Origin: Nipponacmea schrenckii
Taxonomy: Eukaryota > Mollusca > Gastropoda > Lottiidae
Assembly: GCA_030562195.1 (NCBI GenBank)
Contig: CM060201.1
Span: 35,322,067-35,386,066 of the forward strand
Length of the DNA stretch: 64,000 bases
Direction: 5' to 3'
Numbering within the stretch: position 1 is the first letter of the stretch; each line of letters begins with the position of its first letter. Below the pieces are notes generated by a model. That model was not told the origin of the DNA. It did not search any database and saw only the letters and a list, made by a program, of their open reading frames with translations. Shown here piece after piece: positions 13,219 to 21,110 of the stretch. A program made the translations under genes and the position numbers.

Positions 13219-16200
13219 TCAGCGAGAGCGGGACTGAGTTTTGGAAATTTCACGGGCAGCCATTATCATATTTTCTTCTTTCCTAATCAACATGTTGATT
13301 TTCTCTTTTTTCTCTTCTGTATTACAGATGATAACAAAATTGCTGCCACTTTTCCGTGCTCGACCTCTAATTTGAACTAACGCCGTAACGTTTGACGGAG
13401 GGTTTAAACTAACCACTAATTGGCATGCTGGGATATCTACACCCTCCTCGGCGACAGACGTAGCAACAACAATGTTATATTTGTTGGCTTTAATTCCTTC
13501 TAAAGTTCGCTTCTGCCGCTGAACTCTCATTCCACTTTCACTCCCTTTACCATGACCCACTAAATATGTCACTTTTAAATTTGTTAAAGTGTTTTGCAAA
13601 AGTTTACTTAGTTTTTTTGCTGAGCTTCGCATCTGGACCAAAACCAGCGCCATGGCAGATTTTTCTGAGAAGTCGATGTAACAAGTATCATTTAGAGTGT
13701 TGATGAGTTCACGGAACGCTGCAGACTGTAAAACATTGTCGGTGATTTCCCCACCAGGCACTTTCTTGGAATCAATATAATTCTGAATACACCTAGTCAA
13801 TTTATCGTGGGGAATACCATAGTCTTCAATCAAATGTAAGTTATTTCCCCTTCCAGATACGATCAACTTTTGTAGCTCCGGCATAGCGAAGGTCAAGGAT
13901 CCTGTTTCCAAATCTGAAATCGCTTGCAAGATTTTCTTGGTATGGAGACGTAGTAGATCAACACCACATTTGTCTTTTTCGGATTTTTCTTTCATAAAGT
14001 CAATGATATAGCAGACAGTATGCTGGGCTTCATCATCTAACTTACTCGCTAATGCTTCAAAACTGCTGATGTCATTCTCTCGTGTTGGAAAGCCTGGAAC
14101 TTTTTGAGTATAGCCACATAATTCGGTCAACTTTATGAAACAATGAAAAAGATGAACCTTCAACTGAATTTCAAACATTTCTTCTTCTTGTGTGATTGGA
14201 TGACACAGAATTTTCAAACGGGCTGTTGATTGAAAATTTTCTAATTCTTCCATTTCTTGACTGCCTTCCGTAATCCCCACTCGCACTTCACCCAAATTCT
14301 GCAACAATATTTTCAACATGTCCACTGTTTTGGGGACAGTATCGCAGCCGGCGGGAGACGCAGTCAAACCTAGTAGCTTGGGTCGATCTCGGACGTCCAG
14401 TGGTTTGTGTGAGTTGTTCATCAAGGTTGCGTAGGGGTGACGTTTGACGCAGTGATGAACTTCGTCCATGACGACCAGACTGAAATCACTCCAATTTATT
14501 CTTTCTTGACAAATTAAATTATCGCAAAATGCTGAAAAAGATAAAAGATTTTTTCATCAAGTGATCAAAAGTTCAATATCAAAAACTATTGTCTGAGGAA
14601 AGTAAAACGTTTTTTGAATATTTTCCATTATAATTAATTTCAACTGAACGTGTTTTGGAACAGCAGCTTCAAGACTGTACTGATAGTCTAAAATTGTTTT
14701 TTGCGTTGACAAAATATAAAGAAGTACACATTATGTGTTTAAATCTGAGAGAAAGCTGTATTTATTCAATGTCAACTAATAATAAATATATTTTATCAAA
14801 ACATTCCAAGAATAAGATGATTTAATGTCATTTACAAAGTGGTGTTGCATCAATATTTCCGTTATTGGGATAACACTTTCTTGGTATAGCACAGATTCTA
14901 GTGCTGAAAATTGGCTGAAACACGAATGGGTTTCGAACCAGTGATCTCAGAGTCAGGCACCTAATCTCCAGCAATACATGTCAACCGTCTAGACCACAGG
15001 GCCAACGGACCCTCCACAAAATAGAAGGCAGCAGACCAGTAAACTATAGGCTATATTACCTGCAGTAGTAACAATAATATCGTGTTTCCATAGTGGTATC
15101 TTTTCATGTTTCGATATTCCCCCAACAGCTATTTAAATGTTTCGAACTAGTGATCATTTAGTTATCAAGTTGCACTCTGAATCTGCATGACAATAATAGA
15201 TAAGTTTCTAATACTTGACATTGTGAAGATGTATAAGATGAAGTTTGTAATAGCTTGACATTGTGAAGATGTATAAGATGAAGTTTGTAATAGCTTGACA
15301 TTGTAAGATGTATAAGATGAAGTTTGTAATAGTTGACATTGTAAAGATGTATAAGATGGTTTGAATATTACCATTTAAACGATGTATAAATAAATCCTTG
15401 TAACTAGATGAATCATTTAAAGATTTCAGTAATTTGTAATGAGTCTTGATATTGTACAATAATATGATAAAGTTTTAATATCTTGACATTGTGAAGATGT
15501 ATAAGATGAAGTTTGTAATAGCTTGACATTGTGAAGATGTATAAGATGAAGTTTGTAATAGCTTGACATTGTGAAGATGATATAAGATGAAGTTTGTAAT
15601 AGACTTGACATTGTAAGATGTATAAGATGAAGTTTGTAATAGCTTGGCATTGTAAAGATGTATAAGATGAAGTTTGTAATAGCTTGACATTGTAAAGATG
15701 TATAAGATGAAGTTTGTAATAACTTGACATTGTGAAGATATATAAGATGAAGTTTGTAATAACTTGACATTGTGAAGATGTATAAGATGAAGTTTGTAAT
15801 AGCTTGACATTGTGAAGATGTATAAGATGAAGTTTGTAATAGGTTGACATTGTGAAGATGTATAAGATGAAGTTTGTAATAGCTTGACATTGTGAAGATG
15901 TATAAGATGAAGTTTGTAATATCTTGACATTGTGAAGATGTATAAGATGAAGTTTGTAATAGGTTGACATTGTGAAGATGTATAAGATGAAGTTTGTAAT
16001 AGGTTGACATTGTGAAGATGTATAAGATGAAGTTTGTAATAGACATTGTGAAGATGTCAGATGGGAACTAACCTTTTATAAATCTTCTCGCTCAACTCTC
16101 TGATGATATACAGGGCCTGCTGTATTACTAATAATGTTTTATCTACCAAGAACAGAACTGGGCGTGTTGGGTTGTTCTTTAACATGGCCGACATTACCAT

Positions 16201-19200: not shown

Positions 19201-21110
19201 CCGTTTCGAGTTTTTCTCAATAGAATGGCTTTCTTTCTTTCTAGCAATTTCTGCATCTGTCTATCAATTACTTCCAACTCCTGAACAGAACTGTTATTCA
19301 TGGAATCTAGTTCCAGTTGACTCATCTTCTGTTCTATTTCTTGTGAATTTATACTGGATGTTTCACTGTTACTGGCTTGAATATCTCGAGTCGCTTTTTT
19401 AGCCAAATGTTTAGGGGTTGTTTGATGCTGTCGAAGTTGTGCCAAGGTGTTTAAGGGACATTCGCATATGTCACACCAAACCCAGTCTGTTTTATCTAAA
19501 GGGTTGATTGGATTAGTTGCCCATTGATTTCCCGAGCTCCCTGCTCCCATAGCCATTTTCATGGCCATTTTCTGCTGATGTTTTTTGGATGTGAAATGTT
19601 GTTGGGCTGGTTCCTGTCCTGATAAATTAATCGCACAGACGTCACACGATAAAGGGTACTCATGCCCAGTATTGGCTTCTTTTAAACGCTGTGCAGCTTT
19701 GGTATGTTTTGAGCCTGATAGATGCTGTTGGGCATGACTTGCTGAGGTGAGCTCAATATCGCAAACAAAACATCTTCCTCGACCACTTTCAAAAATATAT
19801 GTTTCTGGATCACTTTGGTGTATGTTATTCTGCTGTAAATTAGAACTTGGTACATGTCCACCTAAAACTTGCCCTCCTCGAAAAACTGGAGCTGAATTTT
19901 TCCTTATTGCAGCTTTGATATGTTTAGATCCATTTATATGCTGTTCTTTATGGGCCATGGATGTTAGTTGAATGTCACATAGAAAACAGAAGCCTGTACT
20001 TCCATTGAACCTGTACTCTGGAGAATCTTTAGTGTATGCAGGTAGCTCTGATGACATTTGATTGGTTGTAAGGATATTGCTACTTTGACCAAAATTAGAC
20101 ACAAGTTTTCTCGCATGAGCAATATTATCATTCTCCATTCCATGACTAAGAAAATTAGTTTTAGGCAACATGGCGCGTTTTTTGTGTTTTTCACTGCTGT
20201 AATGTTGCAGAGCACTTGAAGGACCTGTAAACGGCACCTGACACACATCACAGAATGTATTTTCATCCGTAATTTGATTGTCTTCTTCATCACTATCAAG
20301 CCCTTGCCAAGGATTTCCAGACAGGAGCGATTTGATCTTGTCCACAGAAACAATGTTACTGCCTGGTGTCTGAAATTGTCTGTCTAAATGGGAAGTAAGC
20401 GAATGTTCATTTGATGAATTCGAGGTTGATGTACTGTCTCCAAACAAAGAAACCTTTTTCTTATGTTTGTCACTTTCCAGATGTTGTTTCATATTGTCTA
20501 CACATGTCACAGAAATATTACAAATAGAACATGTTAAATTATCAGTTGGAACTACTGGTGAACTAGGGGCAGCAAAACTGATATTTGTTGAACTAGGGGC
20601 AGCAAAACTGATATTTGTTGAACTTGGGGCAGCAAAACTGACATTTGTTGAACCCAGGGTAGCAAAACTTGCACTAGTATTCCCACTAACCCCAGAACTC
20701 AAGGACAGTTTTCTCTTTAAATGTTTTTGTCCAGATAGATGTTGTTTGGCATGCGCCTTTGATGTTAGTTCTATGTCACAAGCAAAACATTTTCCCCTTT
20801 CAGCTACCTCATCAAAACAATATTCCTGTCCAGCACTGACAGCTTCCTGTCTTATCTCAGGGGCACAGCTATACCCTTCACTTCTACGGACTCTCTCCTT
20901 ATGAGGCCGACTAGAATTATGTTCTTGCCAGCTCTGAACACTGTTACATTGGCAGTTACAGATTTCACAGAAAAACGGGTTTTGTGTAAACCCTTGTCTT
21001 ACCGCAGCCTCTCTTTTCCTGTGGTCATGGCTTTGGTAGTGGTCGTCTGCAGATTTCTGGCTGTTAAAGGGCTTCTGGCAAACTTGACAATAATCCCAAA
21101 TATCTGACAT
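13219..21110 (-). CDS. Fusion protein: ten U1/JAZ-type zinc fingers plus Dicer/RIG-I-clade SF2 helicase
   Basis: Six exons: 21110-18153, 16867-16753, 16226-16073, 15403-15372, 15128-15060 and 14531-13219. All phases match (0,1,2,1,1), giving 1,546 aa. Exon 1 encodes ten C-x2-C...H...H fingers of the U1/zf-met/JAZ type: nine in residues 1-570 and one near 945-965. Between them are a coiled coil (about 590-640) and an acidic Ser-rich region. Exons 2-6 encode the helicase: RSYQVELFWKAM, Walker A GTGKT (1025-1029), DEVH (1132-1135), TAS (about 1166-1168) and QIRGRAR (about 1496-1502). These match the Dicer/RIG-I clade. The stop falls 44 residues after motif VI. JAZ-type fingers bind dsRNA in known proteins, so a dsRNA-sensing or dsRNA-processing role is inferred. 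It is divergent from the LRRC72-like gene. Confidence 0.85.
14925..15010 (-). mobile_element. tRNA-derived SINE fragment
   Basis: On the minus strand the sequence has a Pol III A-box-like tggtctagacggttg and a B-box-like ggttcgaaaccc, spaced as in a tRNA-derived SINE head. It lies in the intron between helicase exons 5 and 6. It does not fold into a complete tRNA cloverleaf that I can see, so I do not call a tRNA gene. Confidence 0.55.
15212..15356. repeat. 40-bp minisatellite, short block
   Basis: Nearly four copies of the 40-bp unit cttgacattgtgaagatgta followed by taagatgaagtttgtaatag. It sits between the 32-nt microexon (15372-15403) and helicase exon 5 (15060-15128), and is the smaller of two blocks flanking the microexon. 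Confidence 0.9.
15474..16050. repeat. 40-bp minisatellite, long block
   Basis: About 14 copies of the same 40-bp unit, ending about 23 bp from the donor of helicase exon 3 (16073). Indels in some copies shift the frame, so the YYKLHLIHLHNVK-type translation is not a protein. Single pieces of this unit occur elsewhere, at 39411-39442 and in reverse at about 27355-27385. Confidence 0.92.
16868..18152. other. Intron 1 of the zinc-finger helicase gene with dispersed repeats
   Basis: This intron separates the zinc-finger exon from the first helicase exon. Its donor is TCA|GTAAGT and its acceptor ttttcag, both phase 0. It contains a dispersed piece at about 17680-17800 (ggtatttctttccatcataa, gttaattagggactatt) matching 57545-57665, a (ta)n run near 17808-17824 and another shared fragment near 17275-17370. 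I see no further exon or alternative promoter inside it. Confidence 0.55.
20550..20669 (-). repeat. 30-bp coding repeat in the zinc-finger exon
   Basis: Four tandem 30-bp copies encode a ten-residue repeat of the form SSTNISFAAP in the linker between the third and fourth zinc fingers. The unit length is a multiple of three, so the frame is kept. Copies two and three are identical at the protein level, indicating recent slippage in an otherwise disordered, Ser/Thr-rich linker. Confidence 0.88.

What the first reader, a model, noticed from the sequence alone, without database searches (positions are those of the whole stretch)
13219..21110. Zinc-finger array fused to a Dicer/RIG-I-clade helicase: a candidate new dsRNA sensor or effector
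Seen in sequence: exon 21110-18153 ends with a consensus donor (TCA|GTAAGT) in phase 0. The next acceptor on the strand (16867) is phase 0 and opens directly into the helicase. Six exons sum to 1,547 codons with no stop. Established: JAZ/ZNF346-type C2H2 fingers bind dsRNA, and Dicer/RIG-I-clade helicases (DECH-type motif II, QxRGRxR motif VI) move on dsRNA. Inference: one protein combines ten such fingers with this motor while lacking CARD, RIG-I C-terminal, PAZ and RNase III domains. This layout is not a known RLR, Dicer or LGP2. It could be an invertebrate antiviral or small-RNA factor.
Basis: partly seen in the sequence, partly recalled or inferred. Interest (0 to 1): 0.87.

Follow-up and report, generated by a model that had tools for sequence, protein, structure and literature searches.

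The report
Zinc-finger array fused to Dicer-type helicase
A limpet gene joins ten zinc fingers of a kind that can grip double-stranded RNA to a motor like those of Dicer and RIG-I, and it belongs to an old, apparently unstudied animal gene family that may help handle viral or silencing RNA.

Summary
The fusion is real. On the minus strand, 21110-13219, six exons give 1,546 residues: ten C-x2-C-x12-H-x5-H fingers, then a complete dsRNA-type SF2 helicase. A Lottia gigantea gene has the same layout (73% identity). Of 75 relatives that I counted, 57 carry both modules whole: molluscs, a brachiopod, a nemertean, hemichordates, crinoids, a coral and unnamed rows.

In a 78-row helicase tree they form one clade (100/99), apart from RIG-I-like receptors (joining them is rejected, p 0.0035), grouped with amoebozoan HelF-like and RdRP-linked helicases, then with Dicers. 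None of 38 members scanned matched CARD, RIG-I C-terminal, PAZ or RNase III domains.

Two corrections. Motif II is DEVH, not DECH. One join is weak: the conserved exon near 15128 is eroded here, and the frame is kept only by a 32-nt micro-exon that Lottia lacks, so this copy may be damaged.

Most likely it is a dsRNA-activated motor with finger anchors, acting in RNA silencing or antiviral dsRNA handling. Mollusc Dicers, this genome's included, have a decayed helicase, so it may supply that motor in trans. Function is inferred, not shown.

The parts
18153..21110 (-). Exon 1: start codon, ten C2H2 (zf-met/JAZ-type) fingers, acidic low-complexity linker; donor TCA|GTAAGT, phase 0
   Evidence: 69% identity to Lottia P0001 residues 1-1005
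20184..21089 (-). Fingers 1-5 (aa 8-30, 48-70, 108-130, 194-216, 287-309)
   Evidence: pattern; Pfam zf-met
19407..19988 (-). Fingers 6-9 (aa 375-397, 447-469, 489-511, 546-568)
18213..18281 (-). Finger 10 (aa 944-966), the last finger; it starts 78 residues before motif I, a spacing of 72-92 in 34 of 38 relatives
16753..16867 (-). Exon 2: start of helicase core up to PTG| of motif I
   Evidence: 79% to Lottia
16073..16226 (-). Exon 3: |TGKT of motif I through motif Ia
   Evidence: aligned to Lottia
15372..15403 (-).
15198..16057 (.). Minisatellite (40-nt unit, about 22 copies) around the micro-exon
15060..15128 (-). Exon 5: remnant of the conserved exon (VGGISKHEKIPLWKHDIIVTTA); its upstream part is eroded, with in-frame stops
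13219..14531 (-). Exon 6: motif II DEVH (14466-14455), middle helicase insert, motif VI QIRGRAR (13374-13354), stop; the protein ends 51 residues after motif VI begins
   Evidence: 81% to Lottia

Best explanation
It is the limpet member of an old, apparently unnamed animal family: a dsRNA-activated SF2 ATPase (Hel1-Hel2i-Hel2) with an N-terminal array of JAZ-like fingers. Proposed mechanism: the fingers hold duplex RNA and load it into the helicase, the last finger, at a nearly fixed distance, acting as a cap in place of the missing RIG-I C-terminal domain; ATP hydrolysis then moves the enzyme along the duplex. With no nuclease and no CARD it would work through partners, most likely in RNA silencing or antiviral dsRNA handling, possibly giving Dicer or other small-RNA enzymes the motor that mollusc Dicers have lost. 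Shown here: architecture, family, clade, intact catalytic motifs, a RIG-I-like predicted fold in a relative, an eroded helicase in this genome's Dicer. Inferred: dsRNA binding, ATPase activity, cap role, pathway, partnership.
Against: No biochemistry, expression or genetics for any member was found. By fold the model is nearest RIG-I/MDA5/LGP2, not Dicer (the ancestral Dicer helicase is rank 47 and not in the 50 rows). zf-met fingers can bind other partners (recalled). The brachiopod Lingula has the gene (P0032), yet brachiopod Dicers keep DECH (PMC11114477), so rescue of Dicer cannot be the whole story. helF knockout left Dictyostelium miRNAs normal (PMC4894637, passages). The window copy may be broken at one exon. 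Whether this genome has intact RLRs or RdRPs could not be checked (search not answered).
Confidence: 0.6

Rival explanations
1. The family is real but the window copy is a recently damaged allele or pseudogene, or the assembly errs beside the minisatellite; the product would then stop after motif Ia.
For: The conserved exon near 15128 is eroded, with stops upstream, and the micro-exon route has no counterpart in Lottia; a rescue exon of that quality turns up in 16% of shuffled introns.
Against: Exons 1, 2, 3 and 6 (4,540 nt) hold no stop or frameshift, and exons 1, 2 and 6 are 69%, 79% and 81% identical to Lottia; the micro-exon is the only good in-frame candidate (1 of 19) and restores the phase exactly.
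Confidence: 0.35
2. A CARD-less RLR-like sensor that signals through partners bound by the fingers.
For: Predicted fold nearest to RIG-I; some Mytilus and Glandiceps models are named RIG-I-like by their source; non-canonical N-termini are common in lophotrochozoan RLRs (PMC8998645, passages).
Against: The tree puts RLRs outside (six RLR rows only); no C-terminal RNA domain or CARD matched in 38 members.
Confidence: 0.2
3. A nuclear RNA or DNA factor (splicing, repair) whose fingers bind protein or DNA.
For: Fingers of U1 and SF3a60/Prp9 type match in 9 and 5 of 38 members.
Against: The helicase groups with Dicer, HelF-like and RdRP-linked helicases; Hef/FANCM-type rows form a clade of their own, though they were also used as the root; z-alpha in two members.
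Confidence: 0.15
4. Two neighbouring genes joined by the reader.
For: A stop lies 10 codons past the exon 1 donor; six family rows have no finger by the pattern.
Against: The same fusion in 57 of 75 relatives; 8 of 13 short-contig rows checked have a contig at most 1.3 times the length of one continuous reading frame with both modules; the two finger-only rows still run into motif I.
Confidence: 0.03

Closest known systems
Dictyostelium HelF (row P0111; identity inferred from species, length and domains)
   Same: dsRNA-binding domain before a Dicer-type helicase, no nuclease; in an organism whose Dicers lack a helicase (PMC4894637, passages); neighbouring clade
   Different: one dsRBD (Pfam dsrm) instead of a finger array; the node joining the family and HelF-like rows is only 92/78
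RdRP-helicase proteins (Dictyostelium RrpA/B/C type; rows P0091, P0093, P0098, P0107, P0108, unnamed)
   Same: related helicase (98/92); such proteins work in RNA silencing (PMC3661229, passages)
   Different: fused to an RNA-dependent RNA polymerase, no fingers by the pattern used
Dicer
   Same: Hel1-Hel2i-Hel2 helicase, next clade (100/96, root on Hef-type rows)
   Different: no PAZ or RNase III; helicase motifs intact here, eroded in this genome's Dicer
RIG-I, MDA5, LGP2 and nematode DRH-1
   Different: no CARD, no C-terminal RNA domain; RLRs lie outside the clade (no DRH row was in the tree)
ZNF346/JAZ
   Same: finger spacing (recalled) and Pfam zf-C2H2_jaz
   Different: fingers fused to a helicase

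Membership tests
dsRNA-activated SF2 helicases (Dicer/RLR superclade) | motifs I, II, V, VI and helical Hel2i insert | tested here: met
   all-helical insert about 518-641 in the P0069 model, aligned along RIG-I 244-778; tested on a relative, not on the window protein
RIG-I-like receptors | C-terminal RIG-I_C-RD domain | tested here: not met
   no Pfam match in the window protein or in 38 relatives
RIG-I-like receptors | N-terminal CARD or similar death-fold domain | tested here: not met
   LGP2 also lacks it, so weak alone
RIG-I-like receptors | helicase inside the RLR clade | tested here: not met
   AU p 0.0035; only six RLR rows
Dicer | PAZ and tandem RNase III | tested here: not met
Dicer | helicase inside the Dicer clade | tested here: not met
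   beside it, with HelF-like and RdRP-linked rows; family+Dicer alone p 0.028; the animal Dicers are one ancestral reconstruction
HelF-like helicases | dsRBD plus Dicer-type helicase | tested here: not met
   no dsrm match in the window protein or the 38; neighbouring clade only
JAZ/ZNF346-type dsRNA-binding fingers | C-x2-C-x12-H-x5-H finger matching zf-C2H2_jaz | tested here: met
   10 of 10 fingers by pattern, 7 stretches by profile
JAZ/ZNF346-type dsRNA-binding fingers | binds dsRNA | not testable with these tools
   needs binding assays

The most novel reading that the evidence does not exclude
A third line of animal dsRNA-activated helicase, neither RLR nor Dicer, of early animal or pre-animal origin, in which a finger array (with a z-alpha domain in some cnidarian-like members) replaces the RLR C-terminal domain, and which in molluscs supplies in trans the dsRNA motor that their Dicers lost.
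Probability: 0.3. Interest if true: 0.88.

Novelty: new variant of a known kind. Interest (0 to 1): 0.72.

Why it matters
How molluscs and several other animal phyla deal with viral dsRNA is open. Mollusc Dicer helicases look dead (PMC11114477, passages). Virus-derived small RNAs of the dog whelk are 26-30 nt and not Dicer-like (PMC6085071, passages), and that species has this gene (P0011). The lophotrochozoan RLR survey PMC8998645 selected genes with a helicase plus the RIG-I C-terminal domain (passages), which would hide this family. If the reading is right, a branch of animal dsRNA helicases has been overlooked and can be tested directly in oysters, mussels and corals.

Tried and rejected
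Paralogue hunt: large helicase reading frames 43-88 kb before the window on the same contig (L001-L003) looked like paralogues but are DEAH-box helicases of another family by eye. A direct exon 3 to exon 5 splice is out of frame; my first five-exon model also had one acceptor off by a base and gave stops. Two adjacent genes: rejected at family level. RLR membership: rejected. The finger region finds only 4 relatives among 3,124 candidates, so its linkers evolve fast; that search says little about absence elsewhere. No vertebrate, arthropod or nematode is named among the family rows listed; the searches are word-limited, many rows are unnamed and one search lists 120 of 1,049, so absence is not shown. 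Literature searches listed no paper that describes this fusion; subscription papers and preprints are not held, and supplements could not be read.

Copies of this gene, RLR C-terminal domains and RdRPs in this genome could not be counted.

Choices before counts: the 75 family rows are my pick (P0001-P0042, P0069-P0090 and 11 later rows that have fingers and part of the helicase); only 36 of them, plus the window protein, were in the tree, and 38 in the Pfam scan. Six rows of the 84-row quick tree were dropped for the careful one: P0119 (long-branched), P0115 and P0116 (long; P0116, first labelled HelF-like, fell outside HelF), P0114, P0138 (labelled Hef, fell outside) and a partial mouse Dicer.
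Full report
What is there. The minus-strand gene at 21110-13219 was rebuilt from the DNA. Six exons with GT-AG borders and matching phases give 1,546 residues. Exon 1 alone (986 codons) holds ten fingers, all spaced C-x2-C-x12-H-x5-H, and splices in phase 0 into the helicase. Pfam finds zf-met (E 4.4e-46), zf-C2H2_jaz (1.8e-32), ResIII, DEAD and Helicase_C, and no RLR or Dicer accessory domain. 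Motif II is DEVH, motif VI QIRGRAR. The window is G000:C10:35322067-35386066 of an unnamed 399-Mb genome; the nearest relative found is Lottia gigantea (P0001, 73% over the whole protein), so the animal is a limpet or close to one (inference).

The weak join. Lottia has 'YERPQAIDEINDDLVERELKIAVLSGGISKLEK' where the window model has 'YKSYKDLFIHRLNAVGGISKHEK'. The window keeps the conserved exon only from 15128 on; just upstream the same frame reads LITK*SLVRNI*IAV. It is the only well-spliced candidate of 19, yet 16% of 300 base-shuffled introns offer one or more. So the window copy may be spliced in a new way, damaged, or misassembled. The claims below rest on the family, not on this join.

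The family. Searches with the helicase region and with the hemichordate relative gave 75 rows that I count as the family: 57 have at least two fingers and a full helicase, 12 have fingers and a partial helicase, 6 have no finger by the pattern. Named hosts include many gastropods and bivalves, octopus and argonaut, Lingula, Lineus, Ptychodera, Glandiceps, the crinoids Anneissia and Antedon, and the coral Oculina. Unnamed rows P0079 and P0089 branch together with P0074 and P0075, next to the coral group (97/92); from their record styles I take P0089 for a sponge and P0079 for a choanoflagellate (recalled, not checked). Thirteen rows with both modules lie on contigs of 3,515-5,433 nt; in 8 of them the contig is at most 1.3 times the frame, in 5 it is 1.5 to 2 times. 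The 8 are hard to square with introns like those of the window and look like spliced transcripts or intronless genes (inference). The finger region as query gave four hits: two known members and two finger-only rows, which continue through the join into '...FLPTG' and then stop, so they support the join.

Descent. In the careful tree of 78 helicase rows (484 columns, rooted on Hef-type rows) the family is one clade (100/99). It groups with amoebozoan HelF-like and RdRP-linked helicases (98/92; with HelF-like alone 92/78), then with Dicers (100/96), RLRs outside. Forcing family+RLR is rejected (p 0.0035); family+Dicer without the other two is rejected less strongly (p 0.028). RLRs were six rows, animal Dicers one ancestral reconstruction; no DRH row was used. 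By fold, in contrast, RLRs rank first and the ancestral Dicer helicase 47th; by sequence the ancestral Dicer ranks first.

How it may work. The nearest relatives with a known setting belong to RNA silencing: HelF (dsRBD plus helicase; helicases are absent from Dictyostelium Dicers; helF knockout leaves miRNAs normal; PMC4894637, passages) and RdRPs with a helicase domain (PMC3661229, passages). I therefore propose a dsRNA-activated motor with finger anchors that serves small-RNA or antiviral partners. In this genome the Dicer helicase reads SNSSEKL at motif I and DDCH at motif II; PMC11114477 (passages) reports DDCH in most gastropods, calls the mollusc and annelid Dicer helicase likely inactive, and finds the helicase absent from most lophotrochozoan Dicer2. 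PMC10159624 (passages) suggests that molluscs may prefer a protein-based defence to Dicer's helicase. That leaves room for a motor in trans. Against it, brachiopod Dicers keep DECH although Lingula has the gene. Nothing here tests it.

What is known. Record names are 'hypothetical', 'uncharacterized', 'RIG-I-like', 'dicer-like', 'RNA helicase' and the like. The Aplysia immunome paper does not mention the Aplysia locus LOC101845957 in its main text (PMC9334734). The lophotrochozoan RLR survey selected on the C-terminal domain (PMC8998645, passages) and its main text has no 'zinc finger'. The helicase review PMC8659333 has no 'zinc finger' either. Searches listed no description of the fusion in the held library.

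Verdict. A real, conserved and apparently unstudied family; a new variant within a known superfamily. Confidence is high for architecture and clade, moderate for the silencing or antiviral motor, low for the Dicer-in-trans idea, and open for whether this particular copy is intact.

Noticed in passing
G000:C10:35234584, 35260663, 35278820 (L001-L003), 43-88 kb before the window start: Three closely similar DEAH-box helicase genes with large exons and, in the first two, a RING/IBR-like tail by eye; the third is split by stops or frameshifts. Similar frames at C10:18765397 (L004) and 14067758 (L005).
   Followed up: partly
G000:C8:33202000-33220000 (L011, L012): This genome's Dicer: helicase with SNSSEKL at motif I and DDCH at motif II; RNase III exons present.
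   Followed up: partly
G000:C12:24830182-24831547 (L009, L010, L013): Second RNase III locus with weak matches (E 4.2e-6 and 6.0e-6), perhaps a Dicer2-type gene; not analysed.
   Followed up: no
G000:C3, pairs 5852593/35478929, 10347889/39974225, 10613697/40240033, 11676109/41302445: Four helicase hits recur on contig C3 at exactly the same offset (29,626,336 bases) with equal E-values: at least 5.8 Mb looks duplicated, perhaps an assembly artefact.
   Followed up: no
window 12082-12916: Minisatellite of 40 copies of a 21-nt unit just downstream of the gene's stop, open in several frames.
   Followed up: partly
P0077, P0087 (also P0092, P0094, P0095, P0100 by precomputed Pfam only): z-alpha plus two fingers plus helicase in one protein; P0077 and P0087 branch with the coral Oculina row: a Z-RNA-type module on a dsRNA motor.
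   Followed up: partly
P0091, P0093, P0098, P0107, P0108: RdRP plus Dicer-type helicase fusions of unnamed origin, near kin of the family's helicase.
   Followed up: partly
window 2678-5784, minus strand: Reading frames that look like hexose-6-phosphate dehydrogenase with a 6-phosphogluconolactonase part (by eye, not searched).
   Followed up: no
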